DNA of 64,000 nucleotides from Taenia hydatigena (Eukaryota > Platyhelminthes > Cestoda > Cyclophyllidea > Taeniidae). The DNA is taken from contig JADWOT020000009.1 in NCBI GenBank assembly GCA_036345935.2, forward strand, positions 2,623,381-2,687,380, written 5' to 3'. The notes under the pieces are model-generated. The model did no database searches. It saw only the letters and a list, made by a program, of their open reading frames with translations, and was not told the origin of the DNA. Made by a program: the position numbers and the translations under genes. Shown one piece after another: positions 15,401 to 38,502 of the stretch. Each line of letters opens with the position of its first letter. The first letter of the stretch is position 1.

Positions 15401-18400
15401 CTTGCTAATGCATGTGCCAGAAGACCCTCCATCCCCATCTTAGTGAGAAAAAAGATTGGATGTTATGTAAGAGAAATTTCTGATGGGGATCTTGCCGACT
15501 AAAGTAATGGTTTCCTTTGTGCATTCTCGCAATAAAAAAGTACTAACATTGAGTATTTTAGTAAAGTTCAAAGTAAAGTAAGTACTGCTTCCTTCGCCCT
15601 GAACTACGGCATAGTTCTAGTGTGCTTGAAAGTAGCTGATGTGGCAGTTGGTTTCATCCAAAATCCGATGACCTCCTTAGACATCCCAAGTTACAATTTT
15701 AAGAATGGGATTTAAGATGCGACTGATTTAAGAAGCATTAAGTTTGCCGTATCCCCAATTTCGCAATTTCGAGCGACTGATTATACCAAATTCCCATAAA
15801 AACTTAACCATTTTACGGAATGCTAATTCAAGAGGAGTTACAAGGTTTAAAGAAAACATAACATCGCATGGTTTTACGTCAAAAACATTCATCGTAAGAA
15901 CCAATCTCTTTTACAATTAACACTTATCAGTAAAAAGCGATGATTGTGATGGTGACGGTGATGAAGAAAGTTTTAAAAGCATTGCCAGCGGTGACTGCAA
16001 CGAGTAACTTAGTGTGCAAGAATTCCATCCCTGCGTACCTGATCCTTCAGATCCAAGTTGAGCTCCGGTCGAGCAATTAGGAGTCTGACCATGTCTAGAT
16101 TGCCACAATCGATGGCACACATTAGTGCAGTGTTGCCGATTTCGTCCTGCGCATTCACGTCGGCGCCATGACGCAGCAGCAGCTCTACTACCGTGGTATT
16201 CGCCTTCCGCGCCGCCAACATTAGCGGCGTCTGACCCGGCGCTGTCCCTGCCCGAGCGTTCACGTCGCCTGCCGCTAGGAGACGCTCCAAAACCGGTACT
16301 GCCGACGCGTCTATCGACTGTGTTCCGGGCAACACGGCGACAAAATAGACAAATGTTACATGAATCCTCATTTAAACTGCACACCCTATGGTCTACAACT
16401 ACCCAGTATCTACCGCCAATGGTGGTATGGAGTTCATATATTTGTAAGGGAAGTTCATGCTATGTATCAAGAATTGATCTTTGACAATAGGACAACTTTT
16501 TAAAATAACCACTCTTAAACAAGCCAGTCCCCACCTTTATCGATGGTACTTTGATTTTTTATCTTGGGTTGAGTAGACGTGCCCATATTTCTTCAAACGT
16601 AATGAATCGACCCAGAAAATCGTGGTCTCACCTGCCAAAATCCTCTGTTAACTTAATGTAGCATTAGGCTCTTCATATTGGCCAAAAGCGGAAAGTTATC
16701 ATGTAGTCAGGTGTCCAGAATCAAAAAGATATCCCACAAAATAGCTGATTGATTATAAAAAAGGCTGTCAAGGCTGACTACTGGGAATTACCATACATAG
16801 GACTGTCCTTGACAGGTGTGCAGCAATGAAAAGCAATCAAAAGTTTCATCAAAGTGCTGTGCATAAACCCTCCTATCAAGCAGATATCCGCAGATTTTTG
16901 CCTTCTTTCGGCATAAATTGCCGCGGACATCACCACTGTTGATTGGCAGTCTAAACATTACTGATATACGATGCGCAGGCATCATAAAATGCTTAGTGTA
17001 TGGATGTAACATTAAATCCCCGTTCTGACTTGAGTACCCTTCGCATTATGAAACGTGTAGCGCAATTGCCGATACCGTGCAGAATCCTTTACGCAGAATG
17101 CCAAGAGAGACTATCACTTGAATATATTATTTTTGCGTTTTACCTCAACGCAAATAATGGCGAACAATCCACATTCTATGTTGAAAAATACCTTATGTTT
17201 AAGCTGTCCAAGAAGGATCATGACATTTGATATAGAGAGCAGAATTTCTGGCAGACAATGTGAGTAATACAGAGACTTGCAAGATACTTCCAATAGTTCA
17301 CCTCGCTGTTCACAATTTTTTGTAGTTTATTTTCCGAGACCCATCTAGCACCTGGTACGGAATGCTACTTAATCCTCATGAGGAAACACTACTAATTTGC
17401 GTCACTCAACAGCTGCACATTACGAGTCGTTTTTAACTGCACCGTCTACAATAATTCATGCGAAGAAATTGAGATAGATTACGGCATTTGCCACAGAGAT
17501 GCTATTTGCGGGCGCTGCAATTCTCGTATACACTCAAGTAAAGTAATGAAGCTAAACAAACTTATCTGCCATTTCGACAGTGCAGTTTCTTCGTTTAGTT
17601 ATACTCCCTACTAAACCAACCCTATTACTGTGGCAACTTAACTACCTAGCAACGTGGCATAACTGATTTAAAGGCCCCAAAATTTCAAAGATGCAAACTG
17701 GCCCAAAGACGAACTAATATTTCCTACATGCTCCATTTCTACGATTGTAAGCCACACTTGAACAAACTTGTTGGATCCCTTGAAAAACTGACGATAAACC
17801 CCTTAATATGACCTGCTCCGTACTGAAATACGCAGAAGGGAGGCATTGAAGGGATGGCACCATGCTTTCGATAGATTAATTAAGGAGGTCAAATTCTTTT
17901 GAAGATTGCACATAAACAATAGCCAGCTTCTGAAGCACCTAGAAGGTGCAGGTTATTTGAGAATGAGATAAAAATAAAAAAGGAACGAATCCACAGCATG
18001 ACTTTAAATGCTGCTACAATCAATGGTTAGGCAAATTCGCGTGGCAATGTGACTGAAATAATTATGAAAAAAATATATAAATGATATAGTTACATCATGA
18101 GAACCAATTTTGCTATTAGTTCACTCGCCAAAAAGTTAAACATGCATTCGCTTCCAAACCACCCACTTTTATTTGTACAAATTTTCAACGAGCAAGAAGA
18201 AATCGAATGCAGCGCACAAATTCACTGACTTATAAGCAGCATAACCTTTATAAATGAATGTTTCAGTGTTTAAATTATAAGCTGCTACATTAGCCTACTA
18301 ACTGAATTTGAAGTGGTCTCATCAAGCATTAAACTGCGCCCCTTTATGATTAGCTAGTTGGCTTGCCACAAAATACTAGTATGTCTCGTGGATGGTAATT

Positions 18401-21400
18401 GCCCCTGCATCACCTTTTTCTCACCAATAGAGAATTTCTAAGTAACAAACGATCATTAACATAGAGGTTTATCAAATAAAGTATTGCCCAGGTCATATTA
18501 TGCTGAAAAGGTTTAAAACCAAATGCACAGAACAGCAAAGCAGAGAATACATCATTAAGTGACGAAAACCTCACTCTAGTGTTAGCAGGCAAACCAGAAA
18601 CAAAGAAGGGTTAGGAAGACATTTAAACAGGAAGGTAATAACGATGACTGCTGATCAAACGAAATCACCGAGACTCACCTGACTAGCCAACTACATTGAG
18701 GACGAAATTGGATAAATACAGATAAATACATTTTGGTATTTTGCCAAGGGCGAATGGAGGTCACAGTTCGGGCTTGCACTTAAATGAGTACTTCCGTTTG
18801 ACTTATCATTCCGTGAAGGCTCTGGATTTTCGACATCGATAGGGACGGAATAAGTCGAGTTTGGACAACCATTTGGACACATTAACGCACATAAATTTGT
18901 AAGTCACTATCCTGAGTACAAAGTAAAAACGCTGTTGGGCTGCCAATCCCACATCAATACATTAGCAGTATCCTTATGCGTTTCATTAATCCAAATCAAC
19001 TACTTCGGAGCAGAGGTAGCGACCAACTAAAAACGCATCATTCTTAGCAAGAAAGAAACTTCCAATTTGTCAAATGGCCTCCTTCATTGGAGCTGAAAAT
19101 GTCATTTAGGTAAGATGAGAACAATTGAATTAATTCAAAACCACAAACTGACTACAATGTGGTCTTTAAATGAGAAATTGAAGAGTAGTGAGCTCAGTGA
19201 ACTAAGGAGGAATTCTGAATTGCTACTCCATCCCAACAGCATGAATCGTGGGATTAGGAAAACCTAGGATATATTTCATTCAGTTCAATGGGCCTTTTAA
19301 AATGGTAGTTACATTATTAAACAGACTGTTAGTGACTTCAAGTCATTCGAACGTGACAAGATGGACGATCAGAATAAAGGAAGGAATCTAAAGTTGCCAT
19401 CTGATAATGCTTACATCACTGATGGCGGCGATCATGATGGGAGAGAAGCCAAAAGCATTTTTCTTGTTAGCGTCCGCGTAACCGGTGTTAAGGATGAGCG
19501 AGACGGCACGCCAGGCACCATGACCCACAGCGTAATGAAGGCATGTGGAACCCTGTAATGCAGGCTCAGTTAGAAAATTCACCAGTGACTAATTAGAGGT
19601 AAAAACCACCGCAATCTTCAGTCTTTACAAGGTCTCTGCCACCGATAAATTATTAGCCTCAAGCAATACAGATGAATATTCTTTTCTCGGGAAGGGAATT
19701 TGTTGCCAACAAAAAATCTATGCATACCTATAGCTTAGCTATTTGCGCAATAGTCTATTGATTCCCTTCCCATAGTATCAACCTAGATGACCTCGCCTCA
19801 TGAGCATGAAAAAGTAGCCTACCCGAGTCGTAGGCATTCGCACGAATAGGCAAAGGAGTTGAGGAGCACTGTTGTAGAGGAAGGCAAACAAATCCTCCAT
19901 CTGCTCGAGATCAATGTGCGTTTGGCTCACCATATCGAACCAGGATTTGCGTACTATGTCCAAGTGTTCTTGCTTAAATGAAAAAACACATGTTATAAGT
20001 CAGGCACTCGATTTAGACGACGATAGATTTCGAACTAGAAACCCACACGTCGGTGGTTCTCTGCTCTCCAATATTTATAAGCAGTAGATATCTTGTTTTT
20101 TTTTAATTTCAGAATCGAAAACAAAGTTCAAAAAGCACTTTAATACATGATTTTAGGCATCTAAGTAGTTTCAACTTATAAAATACTTTGAAATGGTCTC
20201 TCGCCTAAGCCAAGGTAACAGTGAAATGATGTTACACTTTTGGAAATAATTTTGGGATATGATTTATTCAAATCCATAGTTAAGGAATAAAAAACCGGAA
20301 ATCGGGGTAAACTTATCAAATAAACAAGTGAAAATTTTATTTTAAATGCTTTCAATAAGTTTTTCACTTAAAGATTTAGGCAACACTGTATTCATTAAGA
20401 AGTACTCTTCTATTTAAAAAAACGTGAGGTTGACAATTCTCACCATATCATTAGTCAGCGTGCCGCCAGAAGAAGACAAGTAGAAACTACTGAGCGCCTC
20501 CACCGCCTTTCGCATTTCCGTTGTGACCTGGTATCTGCAAATCAACCCCCCAACAAGGATTAATCGCCCGACAAATGTGAAAACGCAATACGATATGCCA
20601 AAGGCGCAACAATTACGTGTAATTTCGAAGAGGAATGTTGGGAGAATTGGCTCGATATACAGCAGTAGTTCCCGACACGGGGCTCATTGTCCTGAAAAAG
20701 TTAAAGCAATTATATAACTTCACTGAGTGGAAAAGAAGGGAAGGCCACTCATTTTACCTTGCAACTGGTGTTCGACGGAACTGCTGATGGTGTAGAGTGG
20801 ATATCGAATCAGAATCTTCTGGGGGCGTAAAGGTTGGTGAACGCCCTACCTCAACAGTTCGAGAAAATGACGGCTGGGGACGCTCCGATGGAAGCGGTGG
20901 AGTTGCCGCCTTGGGTGAGGGACCATGTGGCAGTGGACTCATGCTGCGCTTCGGAACTTCCTTATCAAACCACGTCTCAACCATGACATTTTCAGATATG
21001 TAACGTTTCTGCGAATCGGATGTCGAGGCTGGCTGAGTCGACACCACCTCCTGAAAGCGAACGAAGAAAAGAATTAGTTGCGCTTGGTCTAGACTCCAAT
21101 CATCATAGTTGAGAATGGCACAAAATGCTTAAGGTCAAATAAATTAAGCATTCGTCTGTACAATTATTTACAAACGTAGGCTACCTGGAAAAGTCGAACT
21201 TTACACGAAAGCACATACGCAGTGAAGGCTGAGTGAGCATAACTGCGCTTTGTGGAAGGTGATCGGGTACTAAATCATCAAACCATTCCAATTCACAAAA
21301 AACACGACACTCCATAGTGCTATATTCATCCTCGTTTCCCAATGGCAAAACGAAAGAAGGAAGATCCTTGAGGGGATATAATCAAACAAATGTAGGCAAC

Positions 21401-23658
21401 CGCGATTCAAGGATATGTAAGAAAAATGTTTGCCAAAAATTACAGGTTAGCGAGAAATCTGGTGATTTCAAGGGATTCAAATCACTGTAGAATTTCTATT
21501 TGTGAATTCAATCTTAAGGACTAGCACTATCGATTTAAAAAACGCAAATACCTAATATATAAACGCAAATTCGAAGATAATTTTATCTGATTAGGTGCTC
21601 TGACAACGTTATAGCCGTATTTGCCATCATTGTTTCGAACAGAAGAGGATTTGTCCATGAACGCACTTCTCTTCCGCACAACAATCTATGTTATTCAATC
21701 TGTGCAGGCAAAAATCAGAACCAACTTTATTCAGTTAAATTTTTACTGCTGCGATAGGTTTCAGTTCGCTATATAAAAAACTGCAATATCTACAATCTTC
21801 TGCCCATTAACAAAAAAATTATAATCGAGAAAAAAGTACTAAGTGATGGCAACTTCTAGTAGACAGGGATTCCTAAAATGCGCTGGGAAGTGAAACTGAT
21901 TGACCAAGACACTTTCTCCAAGTTAAAAGTGTCAAAAGCTCACCACTAACACGAGTTAAGAGGATCATAAACATGGTGGGCCAAATGACCTTTTTTGAGT
22001 CCTTCAGTACTGCACTAAGAGAATCAATGAGCGCGCTTGGCGGTGGCTTTCCTTCACCGCTAGTTTCGAAGGTTTCCGAGGAGACCTTGCCCTCCTTGTC
22101 CACGTGACCAGCGATGCGTTTGATCCTATACGTCGTCACCCTCCGACTGGCTGTCTCCGTGGTCGCGGTAGAACGCGGAGTCGGCGGTGGTGGTGAGAAC
22201 GCCCGAGGTTCGGTTAATGTCGCTTGGCTCCCCGTCTCCACGCGTCTGAAGAAGCACTCTGTAGATCCACTGAAATCTAACGTCACTGGTGACTTATCTG
22301 TCGGTGTGGGAGTGTGCAATATACCCTGGGAGCGACGAATCACCAAGTCTGTATTGATCCCCAGGTTTCTACGTGGAGGTTCGGAAGCTGTTCGCTTGCT
22401 CACCATAAGGGGGCGAACGTCCAGTCCGACAGAAAACATTTGTGGTTTCGGTGGCGCAGATGCCACTGTTGGTGGCACTGACGTTGCTTCTGCTTGTCTC
22501 AGCTCCTCCAAGCGCTCAATAAGGCGACGAATGAAAAGAGATACATCGGTACGGCTATAGCGGTAGAGGCTTTTGATAAAGGTTCGATCAGCATTCGGAT
22601 ATTCCGTGCAGATGGACCTCAGAAGACGTGCAAAGTACTCATCCAGATCGTCCGTCATGCAAGCGGAGTTCCGTTTGTCCTGCGAATGGGCAGGATCTGT
22701 GGTAAATCCTCTTGTGGAAGTTATTGGTTTTACGCAAACCCCAAAGTTGCGTAGAAGAGGAGGTCCATTAACATAGGCGGCCTGAGATACGGTACGTTGT
22801 TTTGAGGGTGTAAGTTGTGACGCAGCATCCCTACAAGTGGGACGTTTACGCTTAATCTCCTCGGTGAAGTAATGGCTAAGCCTTTCCCAATAGATAGGTG
22901 GAAAGTCAGCAGGATTCACGGAGCGAGAACCAGTGTCAAGAAGGAAATACTGGTTTACATCGGAGTCACCAACACCAACTGAATGTGTCACTTTTGTCGG
23001 CACAGGAGTCTGGTAGTTGAGTGGTGCTATTTCAGCTTGAATTTGAGGCTTTCGTCGTGTGGTAATGGTATCTTCAATTATCTCTTCGTCATACTCGTCC
23101 CCACCGTCGTCAATGTATGCTGTTTCTTCCATCCGCCCCATCAGTTCCATTTGCTTCATTCGTCTTTTTTCTTCCTCTTCCTCTACCCGCTGCTGTAACT
23201 GCGCTTCACGCTCTGCAATTTTTTGCTCCCTTAAACGAAGCTCCTCCTTTTTCAAGGCTTCGTCGTAGAACTCGCTACGAAGTCTTCGAGAAGTCCCAAA
23301 AATTAGGAACTCATCTTGACCACTTTGAAATTTTACTGATTCTTCGGTCGGTGAAATGACTTGGCGCGTGATTGGTTTTACGTAAGCAACATTGCTCTCG
23401 TATAAACCATTCTGACGATGTGTTTCTGCAATAAATTCATCGGGAGTGTCTACGTGTAGGCTAAGACGTTGTGGACGTGACGGTAGGTTACTGAAAGCCG
23501 ATGTTTGTATATGTTGCTGAAAATGGCTTTCTGTAGGATGTGAGTTGACATCATCATCACGGATGTATGAAATGCATTCTTGTGCACGAACAGTTGAGGA
23601 TAATGGGTTTCTAACCACAGTTGACTGTAGCAACGAATCCATATTTAGCCCGTAGGAT
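12344..23658 (-). CDS. KANK: KANK-family ankyrin-repeat protein
   Basis: KANK proteins are adaptors at cell-matrix adhesions: the N-terminal KN motif binds talin, a coiled coil binds liprin, and five C-terminal ankyrin repeats bind partners such as kinesin KIF21A. Seven minus-strand exons are readable: 23658-21990 (or -21944), 21050-20758, 20534-20444, 19972-19823, 19552-19415, 16317-16039 and 12457-12344. With the 21990 donor the frame is continuous for 906 codons (905 residues). The order is an acidic/charged coiled coil (about residues 130-170), a low-complexity linker, a helical KANK-type pre-ankyrin domain, and five ankyrin repeats carrying GSTCLHYAVGHG, GQTPLMLA, GNTALMCA and EGSTALSIAEAGG. 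The pre-ankyrin part (RKSWFDMVSQ) fits the EWFRISSQ region of vertebrate KANKs. I see no KN motif at the N terminus. The identity rests on ankyrin sequence and order; the function in this animal is inferred. Confidence 0.9.
12458..16038 (-). other. KANK intron 6
   Basis: A 3.6-kb intron inferred from the flanking exons. Several open frames occur on the plus strand (for example 14428-14805, 125 codons), but none has recognisable content. I see no gene nested in it. Confidence 0.6.
16039..16317 (-). CDS. KANK: KANK exon 6: ankyrin repeats 2-4
   Basis: This 279-nt exon of 93 codons is in phase 0 on both sides (acceptor GGAACACAG, donor CAG|GTACGC). It holds GDVNARAG, GQTPLMLAARKANTTVVELL, HGADVNAQDEIGNTALMCAI and RLLIARPELNLDLKDQ. 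This is the clearest evidence for the family, since the GDVNA..GQT, GADVN..D and GNTALMCA blocks are the KANK-specific ankyrin signature. Confidence 0.95.
16318..19414 (-). other. KANK intron 5
   Basis: A 3.1-kb intron inferred from the flanking phase-0 exons. It contains a short 10-bp tandem duplication (GATAAATACA twice near 18712). No gene, RNA or recognisable mobile element is seen. Confidence 0.6.
19415..19552 (-). CDS. KANK: KANK exon 5: ankyrin repeat 1 and start of 2
   Basis: This 138-nt exon is in phase 0 on both sides (acceptor CATTACAG, donor GAT|GTAAGC). It encodes GSTCLHYAVGHGAWRAVSLI and then NKKNAFGFSPIMIAAISD. These match the first KANK ankyrin repeat (GNTALHYSVSH type) and the AGYTPIMLAAL segment of the second. 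Confidence 0.9.
19823..19972 (-). CDS. KANK: KANK exon 4: pre-ankyrin domain
   Basis: This 150-nt exon is in phase 0 on both sides (acceptor TTTCATTTAAG, donor CGG|GTAGGC). It encodes QEHLDIVRKSWFDMVSQTHI and a helix ending NSAPQLLCLFVRMPTTR. It aligns residue for residue in spacing with the vertebrate KANK segment running up to the first ankyrin repeat. Confidence 0.85.
20444..20534 (-). CDS. KANK: KANK exon 3: pre-ankyrin helix
   Basis: This 91-nt exon lies between a CTTGCAG-like acceptor and an ATG|GTGAGA donor. It restores phase 0 and encodes YQVTTEMRKAVEALSSFYLS and a short Gly/Thr stretch. It corresponds to the helical segment that precedes the ankyrin block in KANK proteins. Confidence 0.8.
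20758..21050 (-). CDS. KANK: KANK exon 2: Ser/Pro-rich linker
   Basis: The acceptor is GCTTTCAG and the donor is AAG|GTAAAA. The exon enters in phase 0 and leaves in phase 2. It encodes a Ser/Pro-rich, probably disordered linker (EVVSTQPASTSDSQK near its start, SPLPHGPSPKAATPPLPSE in the middle) that precedes the pre-ankyrin helices. Confidence 0.8.
21051..21989 (-). other. KANK intron 1 with an open minus-strand stretch
   Basis: Between exon 1 and the exon at 21050, a minus-strand segment from about 21371 to 21185 is open for some 62 codons (it contains CRVFCELEWFDDLV). It is bounded by a CTCAAG acceptor-like site and a CCAG|GTAGCC donor. Its phases do not fit either neighbour as I read them, so I left it out of the model. 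It may be an alternative exon or chance. Confidence 0.3.
21990..23658 (-). CDS. KANK: KANK exon 1: coiled coil and linker
   Basis: The start ATG at 23642-23640 is the first in the frame after an acceptor (CACTTTCAG, exon from 23658). The product has a charged coiled coil (EALKKEELRLREQKIAEREA and following), an acidic patch (DDGGDEYDEEIIED) and three related short motifs (NFGVCVKP, FSVGLDVRP, NLGINTDLV). Pro/Ser-rich linkers (SPPPPTPRS) follow. The 3' boundary is uncertain. The frame-compatible donor at 21990 (AAG|GTCATT) is weak, whereas a consensus donor at 21944 (G|GTGAGC) ends in phase 1 and cannot join the next known exon without an extra one. Confidence 0.8.
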
Positions 23659-23668
23659 CTGAAAGTGA
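23643..23668 (-). promoter_or_regulatory. Acceptor 16 nt before KANK start codon, possible trans-splice site
   Basis: A pyrimidine-rich TCACTTTCAG lies 16 nt upstream of the KANK ATG. No upstream KANK exon is evident, and the preceding gene ends only about 405 bases away. In flatworms such an acceptor is often where a spliced leader is added. This could equally be a normal cis acceptor for an unfound 5' UTR exon. Confidence 0.4.
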
Positions 23669-23746
23669 CCTATAAAGCCAAAAATAAAGTGGCTGGCACA
23701 TCCGAAAACAGGGAGCAGAACGCAATTTCTTTCAGCGTCCTGTTAA

Positions 23747-24062: not shown

Positions 24063-25240
24063 CTAGCTGGCTGGAGGACCGATATTGAGAGACACGCCCA
24101 GGGCGCCAAACTTCAGACGCAGACCCAGCTTACGGAGGAATAACCAATGAAAATCTGGAACCAAGCCTCGCACGGTGAACTCAAACAAAATTTACCTAGT
24201 GGGCATCAGATTTAGTTTTGCTACTAGTACGCAAAATTAAATGATTAAAATCTTTTTGTGCACAAATAGCAGTTATCTAGGGGTTTAATTAACGTTGTTA
24301 ATTCAGAATTAAAAACAATAACATATAATAAACAATGTTTTAACATGAAGCTTGCCATTTGCCTTACAAATTCAATCCCGCTGTGGTTTTGATTTTGTGC
24401 TAGGGATTGCTTTCGTTATTTATGGTGAGTTAGGCTATTATTGCCCTCTTTTACCCGGCCAGGTTCCGATTGACTAATTAGCGGGCAGGTAATTCATGCC
24501 TTTCAAAGTTAAAGAAACTGCCTTTCTCGACTTACTCTCCAAACACCCTAGATTACTTTGGCCGCGTCCCACATTTAAAAAGCACACTTCGATCCATAGA
24601 ACATTTATTCAATCCATTTGACTTTACTGTGCAATGTGCTTGAGTTACGATGAGTGAAAAATTGTGCGATGGGTTTTCATTGTTCAGAAGTACTGAGGCG
24701 AAATTTCGTTGCATTTCACGTTCATTTGGACTTCCATTTTCAGTTGTCAGCTACTGGAGCAAAAATTTCTCAATTAAAAAACTGATTTACTCATTTATTT
24801 GTACCTAGACCTGTACTCGCATAATAAAGCTTTTTTGAAAATTTTACATAAAACAGCCTCACATAAATGATTCATCACTGCCTACCTTCACATGCTGGCT
24901 TGAACTCTTCAACACACTCTTCTACTAAAATGTAAAAGTCATTAGCATGCTGACATTGCCTCCCAATTTTTCCCTATTATATCCATTGAGAAGACCGAGG
25001 CTAGTGTATATTGATGATCTCAACGACCCATTATCAATACATACTTGCCCTTGTTGCAGGTTCCTCATCGCATACCACAACTTCTCGCGCGGGTACGTAT
25101 CCTGCGTCAAAATTACGAATACCGCAGTCAAATTTCAATTTCATTTTGCACTGTTAAACACAAGGTGCCCTTTAGGTGCTCTCTTGCCAGTTCTATTATT
25201 GACACATTAAAGAACTCACCCGATCGTGAGGCCCTAGATG
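24063..25240 (-). CDS. Micro-exon gene: 3' exons and stop
   Basis: The exons are 25240-25220 (21 nt, SRASRS), 25101-25045 (57 nt, YVPAREVVVCDEEPATRA), 24924-24886 (39 nt, EECVEEFKPACE) and the terminal 24154-24063 (92 nt), which reads FHWLFLRKLGLRLKFGALGV and ends SLNIGPPAS with TAG. The last exon enters in phase 1 after TTGGTTCCAG. Its hydrophobic/basic tail is unlike the rest and could be a membrane-binding amphipathic segment (inference). The 730-nt last intron may hide further exons. Confidence 0.7.
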
Positions 25241-28200
25241 CTAAAAGGAGGAAAATATGTGTGATTTTATGCCATTTTAAATAGAGTAACGAAGTCAATT
25301 TCTTAATACTCACACGAGCGTGTCATCCTTCTAGCATTGCATGATTGTGCACATCCCCCTAGATGAATTCACAGATATCAGTAATGAAGTACTGCTTAAA
25401 TAATGAGCAATCAAGTTATCAACTAGTTCGCTTTTAAGTGTCAATGTATGAGTCTTAAAATTGTTTGTTGTTAAAATTCGCCTTGAGGAAAGACTTACTA
25501 CAGCAACACGAAGAACTGGGGCAACACGACGAACCGCTGCGGCGGCACGGCTCTGTAATATAGGTGGCGATTAGGAGTCAGTTATTTCAATACTTTCTAA
25601 GTATTTATTAAGCTTCATCACTTCTGTAATACCTTCGACTGTGCTCTACACGCAGGGTTAGAGAATTCATTTTGCCTTCTTTTGCCATAATTTCTAATTC
25701 GCTAAGACCTTACCTGAGGGCTGTAATTCATAAAGCTCATCTTCAGAACAAACTTCTTTGGGTTTCCGTGCCAAGCAGCATGACGATTTTGAGCCTGAAT
25801 AAGACATCCGCATTAATGCCCACGTCTTTGAGGCAGGACTTGGGATGAAATGTCGGTGATGAGTGAGCACTTACGGACTGGAGCGGTTCTAGTCTTCTGA
25901 CAGCATGTTGGAGTGCGTGCCGCTATGAGGAAAACAAAACCCATTTAGAAAAATGTCTAGTTTACAAATGCTAAGGTGTAGGGCTAAGGAGATCGTCACT
26001 CTTACTTTTCGTACAGCAAGATGAAGAGGTCGATTTTCCTACAAAAGGTGGGAAGTTGATCAGAAGATAAATAAGTGGACAGAATAAACGTAAATTATCG
26101 AACTTTTCTTTACTCACTTGTGCTTGTTTTCTGCATGCAGCAGCTCGAAGCTGTAAGGATAAAGTGTGAGACGTTACATACTAGTCGATTAATCCGCTAC
26201 AGCTTAGTATTTATTAAACCTACAAGCGCAGGGACTACTCCTGGGCTCTGGAGTTATCGGTTGTGAATAGGTCGCACAGCATGGAGGCGGTGGACAGTAA
26301 TACGAAATCGGTTGCGGCGGTGGTTGATAGCAAGCAACTATGAAAGAAACAGCAAGGAAATTTCAAGTTTCCTTTACACTTGAACGAGTACAAATTTTCA
26401 AGTTGGAAACTTGCCTGGTGAGATTGGCATGATGCCAAAAGTGGCTAAAATTTCAGAAATGAACCACAATGAAAGGTGTAGTGCCTGTGTGTAGAATTTT
26501 TTGTATTTGAATGTGTACCTATCGACTCGATTTCTTGCAATCTAACTGCCTGCATCCAATTTACCTGTAGGGATCGGACAGCAGTATGCTGGTTGTGGTG
26601 GACAGCAAATTGGCTGAGGTGGGGGACAGCAAATCGGTTGCAGATCAGTCGTCGAAGCTTGAACTGTTTAAAACAAAAAATAACCAGTAGCCTTTCTACA
26701 ATCAGCCTTCGGACAAGGGGAAGTGGGCTTAAACATTTGATGTGAACCGATGGCTTACTCGGCTGACAACTTGAACGACCTGAAACAAAAGTAACGTTTT
26801 GTTATTCCTATAAATGGTAAAACAAAGAGGATTTTATAAGTTTATATTGAATCTTGACAAAAATAGCACAGTTATGCCTATAAATTCTAACAATCTCAAC
26901 TTACGGACTCGATATCCTCTGTATTCTGGCGTGGGAACGGGTTCTGAAAGAAGTAACAAAGTGCGATTATATGTAATATACATTGTCTCACGTATCTTTT
27001 CCATGGATCAATGGCAATTACCTGGTTGGATTTCTGGAATTTCGGCTAAAAATAACGAAGTGTAGAGATAAGATAATGATTTAAAAAGTGAATTTTTTGT
27101 TGTAATCTAGAGATCTGAGATTGCTTACGAATCGGTATCTCAGGCATTTGCGCTAAAATAGTGAAGAAGCTAATTAAAATGGGCTAGTTGACACCAAGTT
27201 GATGTAAGGTGACTTACGTATCTCATACGCTGGCATTGGCGTGTTCTCTAGGAGAGATTTGAAACACGTTATTATGGAGATAGATAGAGGCATATGCTGT
27301 TCCCAATTAGATGCACTGGTAGCTCCCATTACCTGCAGCCATGATTTTCTCATTTTCTTCACACTTAATCACCGAAAGTTTTTGGCAGAATTCAGCAAGC
27401 AAATTCTTCTCCGATCCCGTGTCCGCATGGTATGCTGGCACACAAATTGACTCAAGTTGTCGGCCTAAAGTGGACAGCAAATTGGTTCCCCATTTTAAGG
27501 GGAAATGCCAATTAGTGCCTTGTGGACTTACTCAGCATTGCCAGTTGGGATTTCCTTTCGCATTCTAAAAGGATAAGAATTGTTAGATAGTTGTCTAATT
27601 ATATCCACACAGTCATTGTTAGAAGAACTCGTTAATCATCCTGCCTTGAGCTTGAATTTGAGCTTTGTAAGCCTCCATTTCCTGTATGCAGCGTTGGGTC
27701 AATGCTAAAAGACATCAAACACTCCTGCATTTCCCATTTACATCCAGCAAAATTTTATCCTCGTAGGTATTCAGGAAGCTTACCTATTTGTTGTCGAATC
27801 GGTGCGCCTCTCTGATTCGCTTCCATAAGAGCTGTGGTGAAAAAGGAATTCCGTTTGATTTGGTAGTTTTCATGGAGCATGAATGGATAGCGCCTTACCT
27901 TTCTCATATTGGGCTCGTCTTTTCGCCTCCATATCTCTCAAAACCTTTAGTTTTTGACCTAACAAAATAAAAAAGTGTGTTCAATTAATGCATGAAATGC
28001 GTAGAACGTGTAATATCACGCTAAAATAGACTTACAGAAAAGTTGCATCAACTCCTGCTCCTTCCGTTTTCGAGTGCATTCGGCCTCTAAAAAGAAAAAT
28101 GTGTGGTGAATTTGGATGTCACAGCCTCGTTGCTGCATTCGTCATTCATTCCAAAGGAGGACACATGCTACATTGAGTTGTTACATTATGCAGGCGTCAT

Positions 28201-31200
28201 CCTTATTTGTTACCTGAAAGCGTTCTCCACTCACCAGAAATCTTTTTTTTAACCTCCTCATTCCGCATTTGCTCAGCTTTGGCTTTTCGACGAGCGGTTT
28301 CCTGCGCCACTTCATATTCTGCCTGTTGTCGTTTTTGAGCCACTTCAGCGTCACGCTTGGCAATGAGCTCCTGTCGTCGTCTCTCCGCATCTTCTTCGGC
28401 CTCCCTCACCCTCTGCCTGTAGCCCTCTATGTCCGCTACAGGCAAGACAAATAAAACATTTTCAAACCTACTGGACTATTGCAGAACAGGCTAGTGCATT
28501 ACCTAAGATTGCAGTTGCTCGTAAAATGGCAGTGCAGTGCCACTCTGGGTGTCATGTGAACAGGTGAGAAAATTATTTAAAAATTATACTTACGCTCGAT
28601 ATATCTTATATCGTATGCCGAGCCAACGTTGCTAGTCCCATAACGTGAGTAAGAAGCTGCGAGGACACGACACAGCATGTTAATTAAAGACGACTGCTCA
28701 ATCCTCTTGTGCCTATTGGAACGAGGCTTAAAATATTTGAATTGGGAAGTAAATAGGTTAACAAAATAAATTCAATTGTGTTAGTCAGTTAAAATAGATA
28801 ATCGCTTTCACCTGGTAGGACTGGCTCGAGCACGCTACGACCTGTTAAGATAAAATCATCCGAAATGGAATTAATGTACTCTTAAGCGTTTACCAAAGAT
28901 GGCAACATGTACCAGAGAAACCCGTATTGAGATTGCCAGAGCTTCCTCCATAGACATGGCTACTCCTAATGCCAATTCCTCCAAGAGCGTCACTTCCGCC
29001 GATACCTCCTGTGTATCCTCCGCCTCTTCCGATCATTCTGCCGGAACTGACACCTCCACTGAACCTGTCGATCGTGTCTTCCATACCTCCTCCAATTGCG
29101 CCGTTCATCCCACCAATACCAAAGCCTCCATTCATGCATCCGGCACCGACGCCAAAGTTTCTACTGCCAATGCTACCGCTGAGCCCACCAAGAGCTCCAT
29201 TGAGGGCATTGACACTTGCACAGAGACCGTTGATAGCTGCAATGCTGTTTAGGCCTACCACTGTACTAGCTACATCTCCAGTTAAGACACAGCCACCACC
29301 ATTGTTGTTGTTGTTGGCGTTGTTGCTATTGTTGTTGCTGTTATTTCCGTTACCGTTGGTGTTGAAGTTTTGGTTGCCGACGTTCATTTCTTTATCGACC
29401 TTGTTGTTGTCATTAATGTTAGCATCAACACCAACACTGACAGGAGTGGCAACGGCATTCCTTCTTACAATACTGGGTGTGACACATTCGCGGTCTACAT
29501 TTATATTTGTTGTCGATGCTGAAGCACAAAAAAGGAAATATTTATTGACAGTAAATTCATGCGCTTATAATTGCTTGGCTTTTCTTTCATCGAAAGATTA
29601 CCAGTACGCGTTCGTTTCATTTAAAAATGCACTTTTCTTACTTCAAAATTGCACTTTTTGTTCATAATTTGTAAAAAGCTACAATACAAGGCTATTTGGC
29701 ATTAGTCCTGGGACTGTGCATCAGAGTAGCCAAATAAATGCTGCCTTAAACTTAACAGGTGAATGTAACCGAGTGCACAGAAATGGCATGAACAGCCTTC
29801 TTTGACAGTGAACTGAGGTGAAAGCTGGGTGCAGGTCAAAGTACTAAAATCTCGACAATGCCCCTTAATTTAATCACTTACATCCATAAGGCACCATCAC
29901 AATTTTTGGGACTAAAATGGGAATAGTGACTTTGCTATGTCGTTGTAAATCTCACCATTTTTAAAATCATGCCATCAGTATTGAAGTTACCCATTTGGTT
30001 CTGTGGTTTGCAGATTTTCCTCAGGCAGCATTCTCCGCCTATTGGTATGATTATCAATTATTAAAACGTACATACGGTTATTGAAGTTTGAAAATGGATT
30101 GCTCTTCTACCAACTTTAACTTACGTGGCTTATCAGGATCTAAAACAATTTCAAAGGTGGAAAAGTGGAATTATTTCTTCATTTTCAAGTTTATTACTTA
30201 TCTGTCCGATAAGTTGGACGTGTGATTTTTCTTTCTTGTCCCTTGATCGTAATTGCACAAAAGCAACCAGCCTCTTAAGCAGCCTTGTCGTAAAGCAGAT
30301 AACATAAGTGAACAACTACACTATCACCTTATGTCTTAGTCAGTTGGGAGCATTTAAAGCCTGCAAGTTTCACAACTCACCACCACTGTAGTACTCCATA
30401 TCGCAATAGGTACTACAGTTGCATCGTGGCGCCATGTCCATTCCGAAGCTTCTGCTGCTGCAAACTGGTTATGCGAAAGGATGAAGAAATCTCACCAGTT
30501 ATCAAGGCAGTAGCCGTATTTGCATCGATCAACTCAATCAAATTCAACTTACCATTTAACTGGACGTTTGAATGACACGCAGCCTCTAAAAAAGGGATAT
30601 GAGTGAGTGCCTTTATTACTTTTGGGTACTAAAATATGCTCTGACGAGGCAATACTTACGTTGGCAAGCGTTCCTGCGAAGCTTTGGCCAGGTAAATTTT
30701 TTCTTCCGTTGATTTGGAACCAGGACTAGTATTTGAAATAAAATATATTATTCAATTAATTATTCGCTCTACTTTCTTCCTAAAGTTATCTGATTTTTGA
30801 AAGTAAATTAACGAAACAAATGTGCCTTTACTCTGATAGGAAGTCAAAACATTATCGTACCGGTGTCCGAATTCGGTGGGCCAAAAGTTAATTGCGGCAC
30901 TAAATAGTTTCCACCATGAATATCAGTTTCCATGGCTGTATGCGGGTGGATCGCGGATTGAGTTTCAACGTTTTGAGGTGAGTTATTGAATTCTGCAGAA
31001 AAGCAAAGGTCAAAACGAAAGGACTCGAACGCACTTGGCATTTGGTTGATGAGCTCGATGAGCTGATTTAGCTTGTCACCGTCAATCGATCCGTTAGTTG
31101 GAACTGAAATTGCATAGAAAATTGCTTTCGTCCATGAATATATTAGTTCCAAAGTAACTTAAATCATTTTAAGGATTCTATTATGCTCCTGTTAGATATA

Positions 31201-32241
31201 TCAAAAAGTTATTTAGGCAGAAAAAGGCCTAGTTTTAATGTTAACTCTTACTGCTACACTTTTACGGGTTATTTTTAAACGCAGCATTGTAAGAATTACT
31301 ATATTTCTCACGTTTTCCTGGGGACATTTCATTCGAGTAATCCTTTTTTGGCAACGGAGGATAGGCTACGTTTGGACGGCCATCCCTAGGTCCATTGTCT
31401 GCACAAATAAGAATAATCCCTTTTTTTTTAATTTCTAACCCTCTGTAATCATTATCTTCTCCGGTCATTTAACTTTTCGCCTGTCGCCATTTACATTGCC
31501 ATGCTACTCCACTTTGTCCACTACTATAGACAGGTTTAAGCAAGCATTTCATAACCATTGAAAAGAGAATTAGTTTGGTGAGACGTGGAGCATTTGGATC
31601 CGGTCGCATACTGGGAGCATTTGAAATTACCCCGCCTTCCGATTGCATGAGGATTATGGTTACTTACTACTTCTAATCGCATTCCCTTGCTGGGGGCTGC
31701 AGTTACAATCCCTTGATGGCATTTCACGATAGCCGGGAGAGTTAGGGTTAAGACAGGAAACTGCAAGCATTTTTAAAAGACAGTGCATTCAATACAATTA
31801 TTTCTGCTCTGGACAGCTAAGCAATTTTTCACTCATTTTGTGCTACTCCGTTTATTCATAACCCACTCTCATTTACTATGAATATCAGTTTGGAGCTGCC
31901 GAATGAGTCTAGACGTTTTCAAGCTTGTCAGACTAATAATCCAACTTAACAATGGCCTACAGTGGCTAGGATTTACCGTGATAATGAATTATGTATATTA
32001 GAGCAAACTATTTTGATGGTATAATAGGAGTAAGGGATATTTACCAGATTTCCCTAGGTTCTTGTGTGACATTTCAGCCGAGTAATCCCTCTCTGGCATT
32101 TCGTGATAGTTGTGGCTATAAAAGGCGCTTCCCATTCTGGGGTCTGAAAAGCAGGTAAGGGGATTTTCAGGGAACGATTGAATAGAAAGTTTCATCCAAA
32201 AGTCGTAAGCTTACTAGTTTCAAAGGTTGTTCGATCCATTC
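24063..32241 (-). CDS. Mosaic micro-exon gene, novel Cys/Pro/coiled-coil protein
   Basis: I do not recognise this protein. On the minus strand I can chain 37 exons with proper splice signals. Each internal one is a multiple of three in length, and each starts with two bases completing a codon and ends with one base of the next (phase 1-1). Thirteen are 15-33 nt and most others 39-132 nt; typical introns are 50-300 nt. Starting at ATG 32239-32237 the product is about 971 residues, ending with TAG at 24065-24063. Regions in order: DYS/EMS repeats (9-101), a globular-looking segment (102-182), Cys-containing short exons (183-274), an Asn/Gly-rich block (275-476), a charged coiled coil (508-702), a Pro-rich stretch (703-748), PICC repeats (749-819), CC-pair exons (820-902) and a tail. 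No signal peptide or clear membrane helix is seen. The architecture recalls flatworm micro-exon genes (MEGs), but it is longer and apparently not secreted. The 5' end is uncertain. Confidence 0.8.
25499..26150 (-). CDS. Micro-exon gene: five exons each with a Cys-Cys pair
   Basis: The exons are 26150-26118 (33 nt, SSCCMQKTST), 26038-26006 (33 nt, KSTSSSCCTK), 25922-25875 (48 nt, ARTPTCCQKTRTAPV), 25794-25714 (81 nt, SKSSCCLARKPKEVCSEDEL) and 25552-25499 (54 nt, GSSCCPSSSCCC at its end). Introns are only 70-160 nt. The repeated S/T-C-C-x-x-K pattern in successive exons points to serial exon duplication. Confidence 0.8.
26224..26663 (-). CDS. Micro-exon gene: PICC repeat exons
   Basis: Exon 26663-26565 (99 nt) encodes QPICCPPPQPICCPPQPAYC and a short end. 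Exon 26337-26224 (114 nt) encodes CYQPPPQPISYYCPPPPCC and ATYSQPITPEP. The tandem Q-P-I-C-C-P-P unit resembles cornified-envelope or structural Pro/Cys repeats in composition only; I do not claim homology. The Cys pairs could form cross-links. Confidence 0.8.
26759..27247 (-). CDS. Micro-exon gene: proline-rich micro-exons
   Basis: There are five consecutive tiny exons: 27247-27218 (30 nt, NTPMPAYEI), 27152-27129 (24 nt, QMPEIPI), 27045-27022 (24 nt, EIPEIQP), 26943-26905 (39 nt, PVPTPEYRGYRV) and 26779-26759 (21 nt, RSSCQP). Each has clear GT-AG signals, mostly GTAAG donors, and is phase 1-1. The PEIP-like core recurs between neighbours, which suggests duplication of a micro-exon. The product is an extended Pro-rich linker. 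Confidence 0.8.
27333..28841 (-). CDS. Micro-exon gene: coiled-coil exons
   Basis: The exons are 28841-28812, 28656-28594, 28435-28235, 28086-28036, 27958-27899, 27831-27784, 27704-27645, 27564-27532 and 27464-27333. All are 3n and phase 1-1. The 201-nt exon is a near-continuous charged helix (DIEGYRQRVREAEEDAERRR and onward). The next four continue with KRKEQELMQLF, VLRDMEAKRRAQYEK, LMEANQRGAPIRQQI and CIQEMEAYKAQIQAQ. The last (132 nt) reads RQLESICVPAYHADTGSEKN and ends KCEENEKIMAA. Together they predict a parallel coiled coil or filament-like rod of about 190 residues. The donor at 27645 is GC rather than GT. Confidence 0.8.
27470..27490 (-). repeat. Intronic remnant of the PICC repeat
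   Basis: On the minus strand CCAATTTGCTGTCCAC, identical to a stretch coding P-I-C-C-P in exon 26663-26565, lies directly upstream of the acceptor of exon 27464-27333. It is followed by CTTTAG, where the splice acceptor now sits. It looks like a former repeat unit that became intron. Confidence 0.5.
27565..27644 (-). other. GC-AG intron
   Basis: The coiled-coil exon ending at 27645 is followed by GCAGGA instead of GT. The upstream bases (CAAG) match the strong AG|GC context known for GC-AG introns. No GT nearby keeps the phase-1 frame. The acceptor is TCCTTTTAG at 27565-27573. Confidence 0.6.
28913..29518 (-). CDS. Micro-exon gene: Asn/Gly-rich exon (606 nt)
   Basis: The largest exon has a TTTGTGCTTCAG acceptor and a TCTG|GTACAT donor; 606 nt equals 202 codons, phase 1-1. 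After a Val/Asp-rich lead (RRNAVATPVSVGVDANIND) comes an Asn run (NNSNNNSNNANNNNN), then Gly-rich sequence with repeated GG-I/M-G units (GGFGIGGMNGAIGGGM). It is low complexity and probably disordered. A second donor at 28894 (TTTG|GTAAAC) exists but would break the frame. The Asn codons may be length-variable. Confidence 0.75.
29882..30725 (-). CDS. Micro-exon gene: six short Cys/basic exons
   Basis: The exons are 30725-30660 (66 nt, QRKKKFTWPKLRRNACQ), 30585-30553 (33 nt, AACHSNVQLN), 30464-30381 (84 nt, MAPRCNCSTYCDMEYYSG), 30139-30125 (15 nt, PDKP), 30038-29991 (48 nt, GECCLRKICKPQNQM) and 29911-29882 (30 nt, PKIVMVPYG). All enter and leave in phase 1. The 15-nt exon has a strong pyrimidine tract and a GTAAGT donor. 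The Cys spacing suggests disulphide or metal-binding potential, but no known zinc-finger pattern fits. Confidence 0.7.
30861..31103 (-). CDS. Micro-exon gene: 243-nt exon, globular-looking segment
   Basis: The acceptor is GCAATTTCAG and the donor ACCG|GTACGA. It encodes 81 residues with a helical start (DKLNQLIELINQMPSAFESF), one Cys, and a Gly/Pro-containing end (LVPQLTFGPPNSDT). No domain recognised. An internal TTTTCTGCAG near 31000 would also keep phase 1, so the segment might be two exons. Confidence 0.7.
31312..32143 (-). CDS. Micro-exon gene: three related DYS/EMS exons
   Basis: The exons are 32143-32045 (99 nt), 31760-31668 (93 nt) and 31398-31312 (87 nt). They carry YHEMPERDYSAEMS, YREMPSRDCNCS and YPPLPKKDYSNEMS respectively. 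The shared Y-x-x-M/L-P-x-x-D pattern indicates that one exon was copied and diverged. All three have phase 1-1 boundaries with good signals (donors GTAAAT, GTAAGT, GTGAGA). Confidence 0.75.
32215..32241 (-). CDS. Micro-exon gene: likely first coding exon
   Basis: This 27-nt segment lies between an ACGTATAG acceptor and a CTA|GTAAGC donor. It contains ATG at 32239-32237 and reads MDRTTFET, ending in phase 1. The acceptor two bases before ATG could be a spliced-leader site. Because the whole exon is also 3n and phase 1-1, it may instead be internal and preceded by 32779-32732. Confidence 0.6.
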
Positions 32242-32731
32242 CTATACGTGCGATGATTTAGTGGTGGAAGATGGAGCTCAAGGTCTGCTTAGCTCCTTAC
32301 CGGCATATTCTTGCCCCTTATATACAATCATCGGGAAGAAGTGCAGTTTTAAAGTACCTCTTGCCGTCATCTCCCTTCGTTTCATTAGACCCTCATTTTG
32401 GATCAAAATTGTCTAATAGTCCGCTTGAGGACAATGACAACCGAAAGATCTATATCGAAATGCGAAAGTTTAAGGAGTTGGAAGCTTTTGGGGTAAGAAG
32501 TACATATCTTAGGCGAGAAGCGTCATCAAAGCCTCTAGCAGCTTGAAAAAATTGGTTCACTAAGTTTTCCAGCGATCTTTGTAACATAATTATTGGTAAG
32601 TGGTAAATAGGGCGTTTTAGGCACCGTAAAAGAAGCCAATGATGCTGAAGGAAAAAAAGAATTTGTGAATAGATTGCTTAGCTGAATATTAGCTGGCCTT
32701 AGATCAGGATCACTTCCATTACTCCTCATAC

Positions 32732-38128: not shown

Positions 38129-38502
38129 TTAGCTTTGAGTTTCACCCTCCTCCTCCAACACGGAACAGATAAAGGGGATGGTAGAGTCGGAGAGCCCCGC
38201 TTTGGCTATAGATGGTCCCATTGAGAGCTGAGGCGATGAGGACAATGTTAAAGGAGTGGCGGGCACTTCAGTGGCACTCTGATCGCCGTTGAAGTGCTGA
38301 CACCAGGGCGACCTGACAGGGTTCATGCCAGTATTATGTCCTTGACTTTGCTGACGACGATGGATGTGATGTACCTCATCGCGGATCCCAAGTATCTGCC
38401 GAATGGGGAATTCCAAGAGAAAGACAAGCCCACCAACAAGAAGCCAGAAGCCGCATAAACGCATTGACCAAACGTACGAACCGGTCAAGTCGTTCAAGTA
38501 GC
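38129..38502 (-). CDS. Transporter exon 8: TM12 and C-terminal tail
   Basis: 374 nt, entered in phase 1 after ATTTCCTTTCAG, ending TAA at 38131-38129. It begins YLNDLTGSYVWSMRLCGFWL with TM12, followed by a hydrophilic cytoplasmic tail of about 80 residues with a His/Arg patch (DEVHHIHRRQQSQGHNT). It ends VLEEEGETQS. Confidence 0.9.

What the first reader, a model, noticed from the sequence alone, without database searches (positions are those of the whole stretch)
24063..32241. A 37-exon mosaic micro-exon gene encoding an unrecognised Cys/Pro/coiled-coil protein
A chain of at least 37 minus-strand exons, thirteen of them 15-33 nt, can be read with consistent splice signals into one frame of 972 codons. 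The product strings together unrelated low-complexity and repeat modules (DYS/EMS, Asn/Gly, coiled coil, Pro-rich, PICC, Cys-Cys). Flatworm micro-exon genes (MEGs) are typically short, secreted proteins. This one is much longer, contains a rod domain and shows no signal peptide, so it may be a new class of structural protein.
Basis: partly seen in the sequence, partly recalled or inferred. Interest (0 to 1): 0.92.

Follow-up and report, generated by a model that had tools for sequence, protein, structure and literature searches.

The report
Tapeworm 40-exon cysteine-rich rod-protein gene
The stretch holds a real tapeworm gene, cut into 40 mostly tiny exons, that encodes an uncharacterised protein with a long helical rod and a cysteine- and proline-rich tail; it is a candidate, still unproven, for one of the 'keratin-like' building proteins of tapeworm eggs and hooks.

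Summary
The minus strand at 32239-24740 carries 40 exons encoding 960 aa; all 39 introns are phase 1 and all 38 internal exons are multiples of three. A chain finder recovers 30 phase-1 exons here, against at most 4 in 200 random sequences. The gene is conserved: 39 of 40 exons match an Echinococcus multilocularis 'conserved hypothetical protein', 38 of 40 match Taenia crassiceps TcWFU_005430. Other relatives occur in three taeniids, Mesocestoides and Hymenolepis/Rodentolepis. The window is therefore taken as a taeniid tapeworm; one genome search found no second copy.

It is not simply a new class. It meets the published tapeworm definition of a micro-exon gene (27 of 40 exons under 70 nt) but not the schistosome description: 12.4% rather than about 80% of the coding sequence in 6-36 nt exons, and no signal-like N-terminus. 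No Pfam domain. AlphaFold2 predicts a 129-residue helix in mostly low-confidence sequence. Best guess for function: a cytoplasmic, disulphide-cross-linked structural protein (keratin analogue). That function is inferred, not shown.

The parts
32215..32239 (-). exon 1, start codon, MDRTTFET
   Evidence: in-frame TAA upstream
32045..32143 (-). exon 2, repeat copy 1 (HEMPERDYSAEMS)
31668..31760 (-). exon 3, repeat copy 2 (REMPSRDCNCSPQ); absent from the T. crassiceps model
31300..31398 (-). exon 4, repeat copy 3 (PLPKKDYSNEMS)
   Evidence: DNA repeats D2/D3
31035..31103 (-). exon 5, conserved DKLNQLIELINQMP
30861..30992 (-). exon 6
30660..30725 (-). exon 7, basic KKKFTWPKLRR motif
30553..30585 (-). 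exon 8, micro-exon
30381..30464 (-). exon 9, Cys-rich
30125..30139 (-). exon 10, 15-nt micro-exon DPDKP
29991..30038 (-). exon 11, GECCLRKICKPQNQM
   Evidence: read in another frame in two other species' models
29882..29911 (-). exon 12, 30-nt micro-exon
28913..29518 (-). exon 13, the one large exon: Asn- then Gly-rich, with a short conserved block (GLNSIAAINGLCASVNALNGALGGL)
28812..28841 (-). exon 14, 30-nt micro-exon
28594..28656 (-). exon 15
28235..28435 (-). exon 16, first part of the helical rod
28036..28086 (-). exon 17, rod
27899..27958 (-). exon 18, rod
27784..27831 (-). exon 19, rod
27645..27704 (-). exon 20, rod; followed by a GC-AG intron
27532..27564 (-). exon 21, micro-exon after the long helix
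27333..27464 (-). exon 22, strongly conserved block (VPAYHADTGSEKNLLAEFCQKLSVIK)
27218..27247 (-). exon 23, Pro/Glu micro-exon
27129..27152 (-). exon 24, 24-nt micro-exon PQMPEIPI
27022..27045 (-). exon 25, 24-nt micro-exon PEIPEIQP
26905..26943 (-). exon 26
26759..26779 (-). exon 27, 21-nt micro-exon
26565..26663 (-). exon 28, PICC module (PICCPPPQPICCPPQPAYCC)
26415..26444 (-). exon 29, 30-nt micro-exon; followed by a GC-AG intron
26224..26337 (-). exon 30, Pro/Cys module
26118..26150 (-). exon 31, Cys-Cys micro-exon
26006..26038 (-). exon 32, Cys-Cys micro-exon
25875..25922 (-). exon 33, Cys-Cys micro-exon
25714..25794 (-). exon 34, SKSSCCLARKPKEVCSEDELYELQPS
   Evidence: a similar block is seen by eye in Hymenolepis P0007
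25499..25552 (-). exon 35, Cys-Cys module
25314..25358 (-). exon 36
25220..25240 (-). exon 37, 21-nt micro-exon
   Evidence: weakest in P0002, 3 of 7
25045..25101 (-). exon 38
24886..24924 (-). exon 39, IEECVEEFKPACE
   Evidence: acceptor 24924 chosen because it restores the conserved IEE
24740..24753 (-). exon 40, terminal, VADN and stop TGA
   Evidence: same C-terminus as E. multilocularis P0002
24604..24609 (-). AATAAA, possible polyadenylation signal

Best explanation
A protein-coding taeniid tapeworm gene (one copy found in its genome) built almost entirely of phase-1 symmetric exons, probably enlarged by duplication of such exons (exons 2-4 are recognisable copies). Its product is a cytoplasmic structural protein: a disordered Asn/Gly-rich head, a helical rod of about 130 residues, a Pro-Glu hinge, and a Cys-Pro / Cys-Cys tail. 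Proposed mechanism: the rods associate side by side and the paired cysteines cross-link between molecules, giving a hard, insoluble intracellular material, analogous to (not homologous with) vertebrate keratin plus keratin-associated protein. The likeliest site is the 'keratin-like' embryophore blocks or the hooks of the tapeworm embryo. Shown: gene model, conservation, phase rule, tail composition. Predicted: the helix. Inferred: cytoplasmic location (hydropathy only), assembly, cross-linking, site.
For: Gene. Exon copies: DNA repeats D2/D3; pairs 2-3 and 2-4 rank first and second by z-score among the exon pairs tested, while pair 3-4 is not among the 18 listed. Rod: AlphaFold2 of the E. multilocularis orthologue gives a helix at 523-651 with 10-residue block means of 73-96 over 521-650. 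Tail: 32 Cys in residues 694-960, 30 of 32 kept in T. crassiceps and 30 of 32 in E. multilocularis, against 201 and 181 of 235 non-Cys residues (one-sided Fisher p 0.16 and 0.018). Best 19-residue hydropathy mean in the N-terminal region -0.53. Taeniid embryophore blocks are laid down in a syncytial cytoplasmic envelope and described as an inert keratin-like protein, and the hooks as keratinised (PMC5486576, PMC5846836, passages read).
Against: No expression, localisation or protein data were found. Hymenolepis/Rodentolepis relatives are less Cys-rich (2.1-4.3% in the seven members, against 5.7%), and so is M. corti (2.4%); some of those annotated tails look misframed by eye, but the two Hymenolepis tails tested gave no match in either frame. 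Periodicity was not found in the whole rod with the broad residue set; a weak period near 3.66 appears with a restricted set. Tail Cys conservation is significant in one of two comparisons. Rostellar hooks as the only site are unlikely: H. diminuta, which has a family member, lacks scolex hooks (PMC6121280, start of abstract in a listing). No relative was found outside Cyclophyllidea, although other tapeworm embryos also bear hooks (recalled), so a general hook role would need undetected relatives. Other annotated keratin genes exist in Echinococcus (PMC10302083, passages read).
Confidence: 0.35

Rival explanations
1. A micro-exon gene in the schistosome sense: a secreted or surface protein whose symmetric micro-exons are skipped in many combinations to vary an antigen facing the host.
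For: Every internal exon could be skipped without a frameshift; meets the tapeworm MEG criteria (against PMC7653826); the T. crassiceps model lacks exon 3.
Against: No hydrophobic leader; only 12.4% of the coding sequence in 6-36 nt symmetric exons against about 80% in schistosome MEGs, which are almost without exception secreted or membrane-anchored (PMC5825161, passages read). The E. multilocularis model keeps 39 of 40 exons. No splice-variant data either way.
Confidence: 0.12
2. A tapeworm cytoskeletal or tegument scaffold protein (intermediate-filament-like or microthrix-associated), not a sclerotised material; the cysteines bind metal or partners rather than cross-link.
For: Long predicted helix, Gly-rich head, no signal-like N-terminus.
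Against: No intermediate-filament Pfam match in the window protein or in 13 relatives (the four weak hits there are to other families and below their cut-offs); no PDB relative of P0002; a Cys-Cys/Pro tail is unusual for a dynamic filament (inference).
Confidence: 0.3
3. An egg, vitelline or germ-line structural protein elsewhere (eggshell, sperm), for example like the Cys/Pro-rich sperm mitochondrial capsule or cornified-envelope proteins.
For: CCPPPQ-type repeats resemble those protein kinds (recalled, not tested).
Against: Eggshell precursors are normally secreted (recalled); the protein searches returned only tapeworm relatives.
Confidence: 0.15
4. The exon chain is a chance assembly or a pseudogene.
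For: Free choice of GT/AG sites can join much by eye; many of these short exons are open in more than one frame.
Against: 30 automatic phase-1 exons against at most 4 in 200 random sequences; 39 of 40 exons conserved in the E. multilocularis model.
Confidence: 0.01

Closest known systems
E. multilocularis conserved hypothetical protein (P0002, 995 aa) and T. crassiceps TcWFU_005430 (P0001, 959 aa)
   Same: 39 and 38 of 40 exons at 50% identity or more; same module order.
   Different: Annotated only as hypothetical; the T. crassiceps model lacks exon 3 and has another last exon.
Hymenolepis/Rodentolepis relatives: H. weldensis ACTXT7_008721, _008722, _008723, two H. microstoma proteins, R. nana and H. 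diminuta proteins labelled 'CCDC66 domain-containing'
   Same: Shared rod and VPxYxxDT..EK block; an N/D-QLI motif in 5 of 7; PERD-type motif in 5 of 7, plus PEREY in P0013.
   Different: 35 and 28% identity to P0002 for the two aligned; H. weldensis has three genes with consecutive locus numbers, the window's genome gave one. The CCDC66 label is not borne out by Pfam.
Micro-exon genes of tapeworms (criteria of PMC7653826)
   Same: 27 of 40 exons under 70 nt and divisible by three; three runs of five.
   Different: No leader-like N-terminus, unlike the tandem MEG family with a shared leader-like motif that the paper describes in H. microstoma.
Vertebrate hard keratin with keratin-associated proteins (works like; recalled)
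   Same: Gly-rich part, helical rod, Cys-rich part, cytoplasmic (here inferred).
   Different: No intermediate-filament domain; no homology detected.

Membership tests
Micro-exon gene, tapeworm criteria (PMC7653826) | At least 7 exons | tested here: met
   40 exons
Micro-exon gene, tapeworm criteria (PMC7653826) | At least half of exons under 70 nt and divisible by three | tested here: met
   27 of 40
[quoted passage not shown]
   three runs of 5
Micro-exon gene, schistosome description (PMC5825161) | About 80% of coding sequence in symmetric exons of 6-36 bp | tested here: not met
   357 of 2883 nt, 12.4%
Micro-exon gene, schistosome description (PMC5825161) | Secreted or membrane-anchored product with signal peptide | tested here: not met
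   Kyte-Doolittle proxy only: N-terminal maximum -0.53, overall maximum 1.52 in the chain; SignalP not available
Micro-exon gene, schistosome description (PMC5825161) | Protein variation by micro-exon skipping | not testable with these tools
   no RNA data
Intermediate-filament protein / keratin | Pfam intermediate-filament rod | tested here: not met
   no Pfam hit for the window protein at E 1; none for P0001, P0002, P0006-P0008 at E 0.1; no such hit in 8 others at E 1
Intermediate-filament protein / keratin | Heptad coiled-coil rod | tested here: inconclusive
   long helix predicted; period test negative for the whole rod; weak 3.58-3.76 peaks in 5 of 9 tests
CCDC66 (UniRef label of relatives P0011, P0012) | CCDC66 Pfam domain | tested here: not met
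   no CCDC66 hit at E 1 in P0011 or P0012
Tapeworm embryophore or hook 'keratin' | Present in purified embryophores or hooks | not testable with these tools
   no proteome data; searches gave no identified protein in the listings or passages seen

The most novel reading that the evidence does not exclude
This family is the molecular identity of the 'keratin-like' material of tapeworm embryophores and/or embryonic hooks: a lineage-specific invention, grown by phase-1 micro-exon duplication, that does the job of hard keratin without being an intermediate-filament protein.
Probability: 0.18. Interest if true: 0.8.

Novelty: new variant of a known kind. Interest (0 to 1): 0.5.

Why it matters
The gene shows a micro-exon architecture carried to an extreme (39 of 39 introns in one phase) in what looks like a non-secreted protein; the schistosome paper read here describes micro-exon genes as almost without exception secreted or membrane-anchored. 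The phase rule gives a usable gene model where automated ones appear to fail: parts of the T. solium, T. asiatica and Hydatigera models match these exons in other frames. If the structural reading holds, it offers a named gene for the keratin-like material that makes taeniid eggs so resistant, which the passages read here describe by electron microscopy and a 1966 chemical analysis.

Tried and rejected
Chance chain: rejected. My first terminal exon (24810-24791) and exon 39 acceptor (24921) were replaced after comparison with P0001/P0002. An extra exon at 28712-28692 was considered and left out: weak donor, no counterpart in P0001 or P0002. CCDC66, peptidase S1 and chitin-binding labels on relatives: not borne out by Pfam. 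Paralogue in the window: no match at E 0.001 outside 24700-32300 except the neighbouring-gene part of P0006. Paralogue in the genome: 16 matches, all within this gene; a second query with Hymenolepis P0010 did not complete, so a diverged paralogue is not excluded. Whole-rod period test: negative. Fold search was not run: only one long helix is confident, so matches would mean little. Literature for a described protein of this family or for embryophore/hook proteins: (top rows only); none of the titles, abstract starts or passages seen described one. Passages of PMC5440512 and PMC4836691 gave nothing on this gene. Supplementary tables could not be opened, so I cannot say whether this gene is in the published list of 35 E. 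multilocularis MEGs. The species was not identified; the genome is 306 Mb in 1354 contigs.
Full report
WHAT IS THERE. Read on the minus strand, 32239-24740 resolves into 40 exons and 960 codons. Intron ends are GT-AG in 37 and GC-AG in 2 (after exons 20 and 29). Every one of the 39 introns interrupts a codon after its first base, so all 38 internal exons are multiples of three. Exon lengths run from 14 to 606 nt, with 13 internal exons of 15-33 nt; introns run from 42 to 363 nt. An in-frame TAA lies seven codons before the ATG (six codons between), and an AATAAA lies at 24609-24604.

MORE THAN CHANCE. The opposite strand gave 1-3. In 200 first-order Markov sequences the maximum was 4 in that frame class and 5 in any class. 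The other two frame classes on the target strand reached 17 and 11, because many of these short exons are open in more than one frame; the phase-1 class is clearly ahead. Of the 11 minus-strand control windows clear of the gene, 10 gave 0-3 and 15201-22801 gave 7 in another class; plus-strand windows gave 0-4. The splice-site scores were set by hand, after I had looked at the locus.

CONSERVATION. The first protein search (residues 500-800) gave 6 relatives: T. crassiceps TcWFU_005430 (P0001), E. multilocularis (P0002), T. solium TSMEX_005094 (P0003), T. asiatica (P0004), Hydatigera taeniaeformis (P0005), Mesocestoides corti (P0006). Exons at 50% identity or more: P0001 38 of 40, P0002 39, P0003 22, P0004 21, P0005 20, P0006 10. 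Junctions crossed without a gap: 34, 38, 25, 21, 21 and 27 of 39. I take the low counts in P0003-P0005 to be in part annotation errors: pieces of these models match exons 33, 34 and 38 (T. solium; 32 weakly), 11 and 12 (T. asiatica) and 10/11 (Hydatigera; 8 weakly) in another frame than mine. For exons 8, 11 and 12 two species' models thus disagree with P0001 and P0002; the uniform phase and the two full-length models decide for the reading given here, and RNA would settle it. A profile search added H. weldensis P0007 and P0008 but did not list P0006, probably because only the candidates sharing most words were scored. A search with P0007 added H. microstoma (P0009, P0010), R. nana (P0011), H. 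diminuta (P0012) and a third H. weldensis gene (P0013). The three H. weldensis genes have consecutive locus numbers, hence probably a tandem array. Mesocestoides and Hymenolepis are Cyclophyllidea, as are the taeniids (recalled), and no other group appeared; the searches depend on shared five-residue words, so relatives further off may be missed. In the window's own genome all 16 matches fall at C9:2648426-2655530, inside this gene.

SYNTENY. Residues 33-145 of the M. corti model match the window at 38500-38141 (52%), an ORF upstream of this gene. Its gene predictor evidently fused two neighbours, so the gene order appears conserved between Mesocestoides and this taeniid.

MODULES. Exons 2, 3 and 4 carry three divergent copies of one unit, seen in DNA (D2/D3) and as the two top exon pairs by z-score, 2-3 and 2-4; this is the clearest trace of growth by exon duplication. 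Exon 5 has a short conserved block. Exon 13 is Asn- then Gly-rich. Exons 16-22 form the rod region. Exons 23-27 are rich in Pro and Glu. Exons 28-30 are 14% Cys and 30% Pro, and exons 31-37 are 16% Cys and 23% Ser. AlphaFold2 on P0002 with 8 sequences: mean pLDDT 43.8, 741 of 995 residues under 50, but a helix at 523-651 (block means 73-96 over 521-650) and shorter helices including 659-676 and 688-716. Hydrophobic periodicity: none for the whole rod with the broad residue set (1591 of 2000 shuffles as high). With ILVMFYW the 129-residue helix peaks at 3.66 (about 1.4% of shuffles as high), near the 11/3 of hendecad coils; of nine tests, five gave p under 0.03. I treat a coiled coil as possible, not shown.

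TAIL CYSTEINES. Of 32 Cys in residues 694-960, 30 are kept in T. crassiceps and 30 in E. multilocularis, against 201 and 181 of 235 other residues (p 0.16 and 0.018). This suggests, but does not prove, selection on the cysteines. In residues 1-265, Cys is no better kept than other residues (9 and 7 of 12).

KNOWN KINDS. Pfam: nothing at E 1 for the window protein, nothing at E 0.1 for 5 relatives, and only hits below cut-off for 3 of 8 more. PDB by sequence: nothing for P0002. Micro-exon genes: the tapeworm criteria in PMC7653826 (passages read) are met; the schistosome description in PMC5825161 (passages read) is not.

FUNCTION. The passages read describe the taeniid embryophore as blocks of inert keratin-like protein laid down inside the inner envelope, a syncytial cytoplasmic layer, and the hooks as keratinised (PMC5486576, PMC5846836). 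A protein without a signal-like N-terminus, with a rod and a Cys-Cys/Pro tail, fits such a material. H. diminuta has a family member and no scolex hooks (PMC6121280, start of abstract), which argues against a role confined to rostellar hooks. A review lists one or two annotated keratin genes in Echinococcus (PMC10302083, passages read), so other candidates exist. I found no expression data for this gene, so the functional part stays an inference.

Noticed in passing
window 21876-23669 (-): 598-aa open frame just downstream with a charged stretch and no Pfam hit at E 1.
   Followed up: partly
window 38132-38530, 40574-40975, 50644-51057 (-): Upstream ORFs; the last two match the major facilitator superfamily below the curated cut-off, the first has no Pfam hit but matches the N-terminal part of the M. 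corti model of this gene.
   Followed up: partly
window 16012-16371 and 19415-19588 (-): Ankyrin-repeat ORF and a further possible ankyrin-like exon read by eye.
   Followed up: no
P0009 (H. microstoma, 1816 aa): Contains a long stretch twice (from residues 122 and 951; the first 186 residues identical), as if two gene copies or an assembly duplication had been merged.
   Followed up: partly
P0004, P0005, P0011, P0012: Database names (peptidase S1, chitin-binding, CCDC66) are not borne out by Pfam scans.
   Followed up: yes
window 27644-27643 and 26414-26413 (-): Two GC donor sites (GC-AG introns) in one gene, both in phase 1.
   Followed up: partly
window 48673-48698: A run of 26 C.
   Followed up: no
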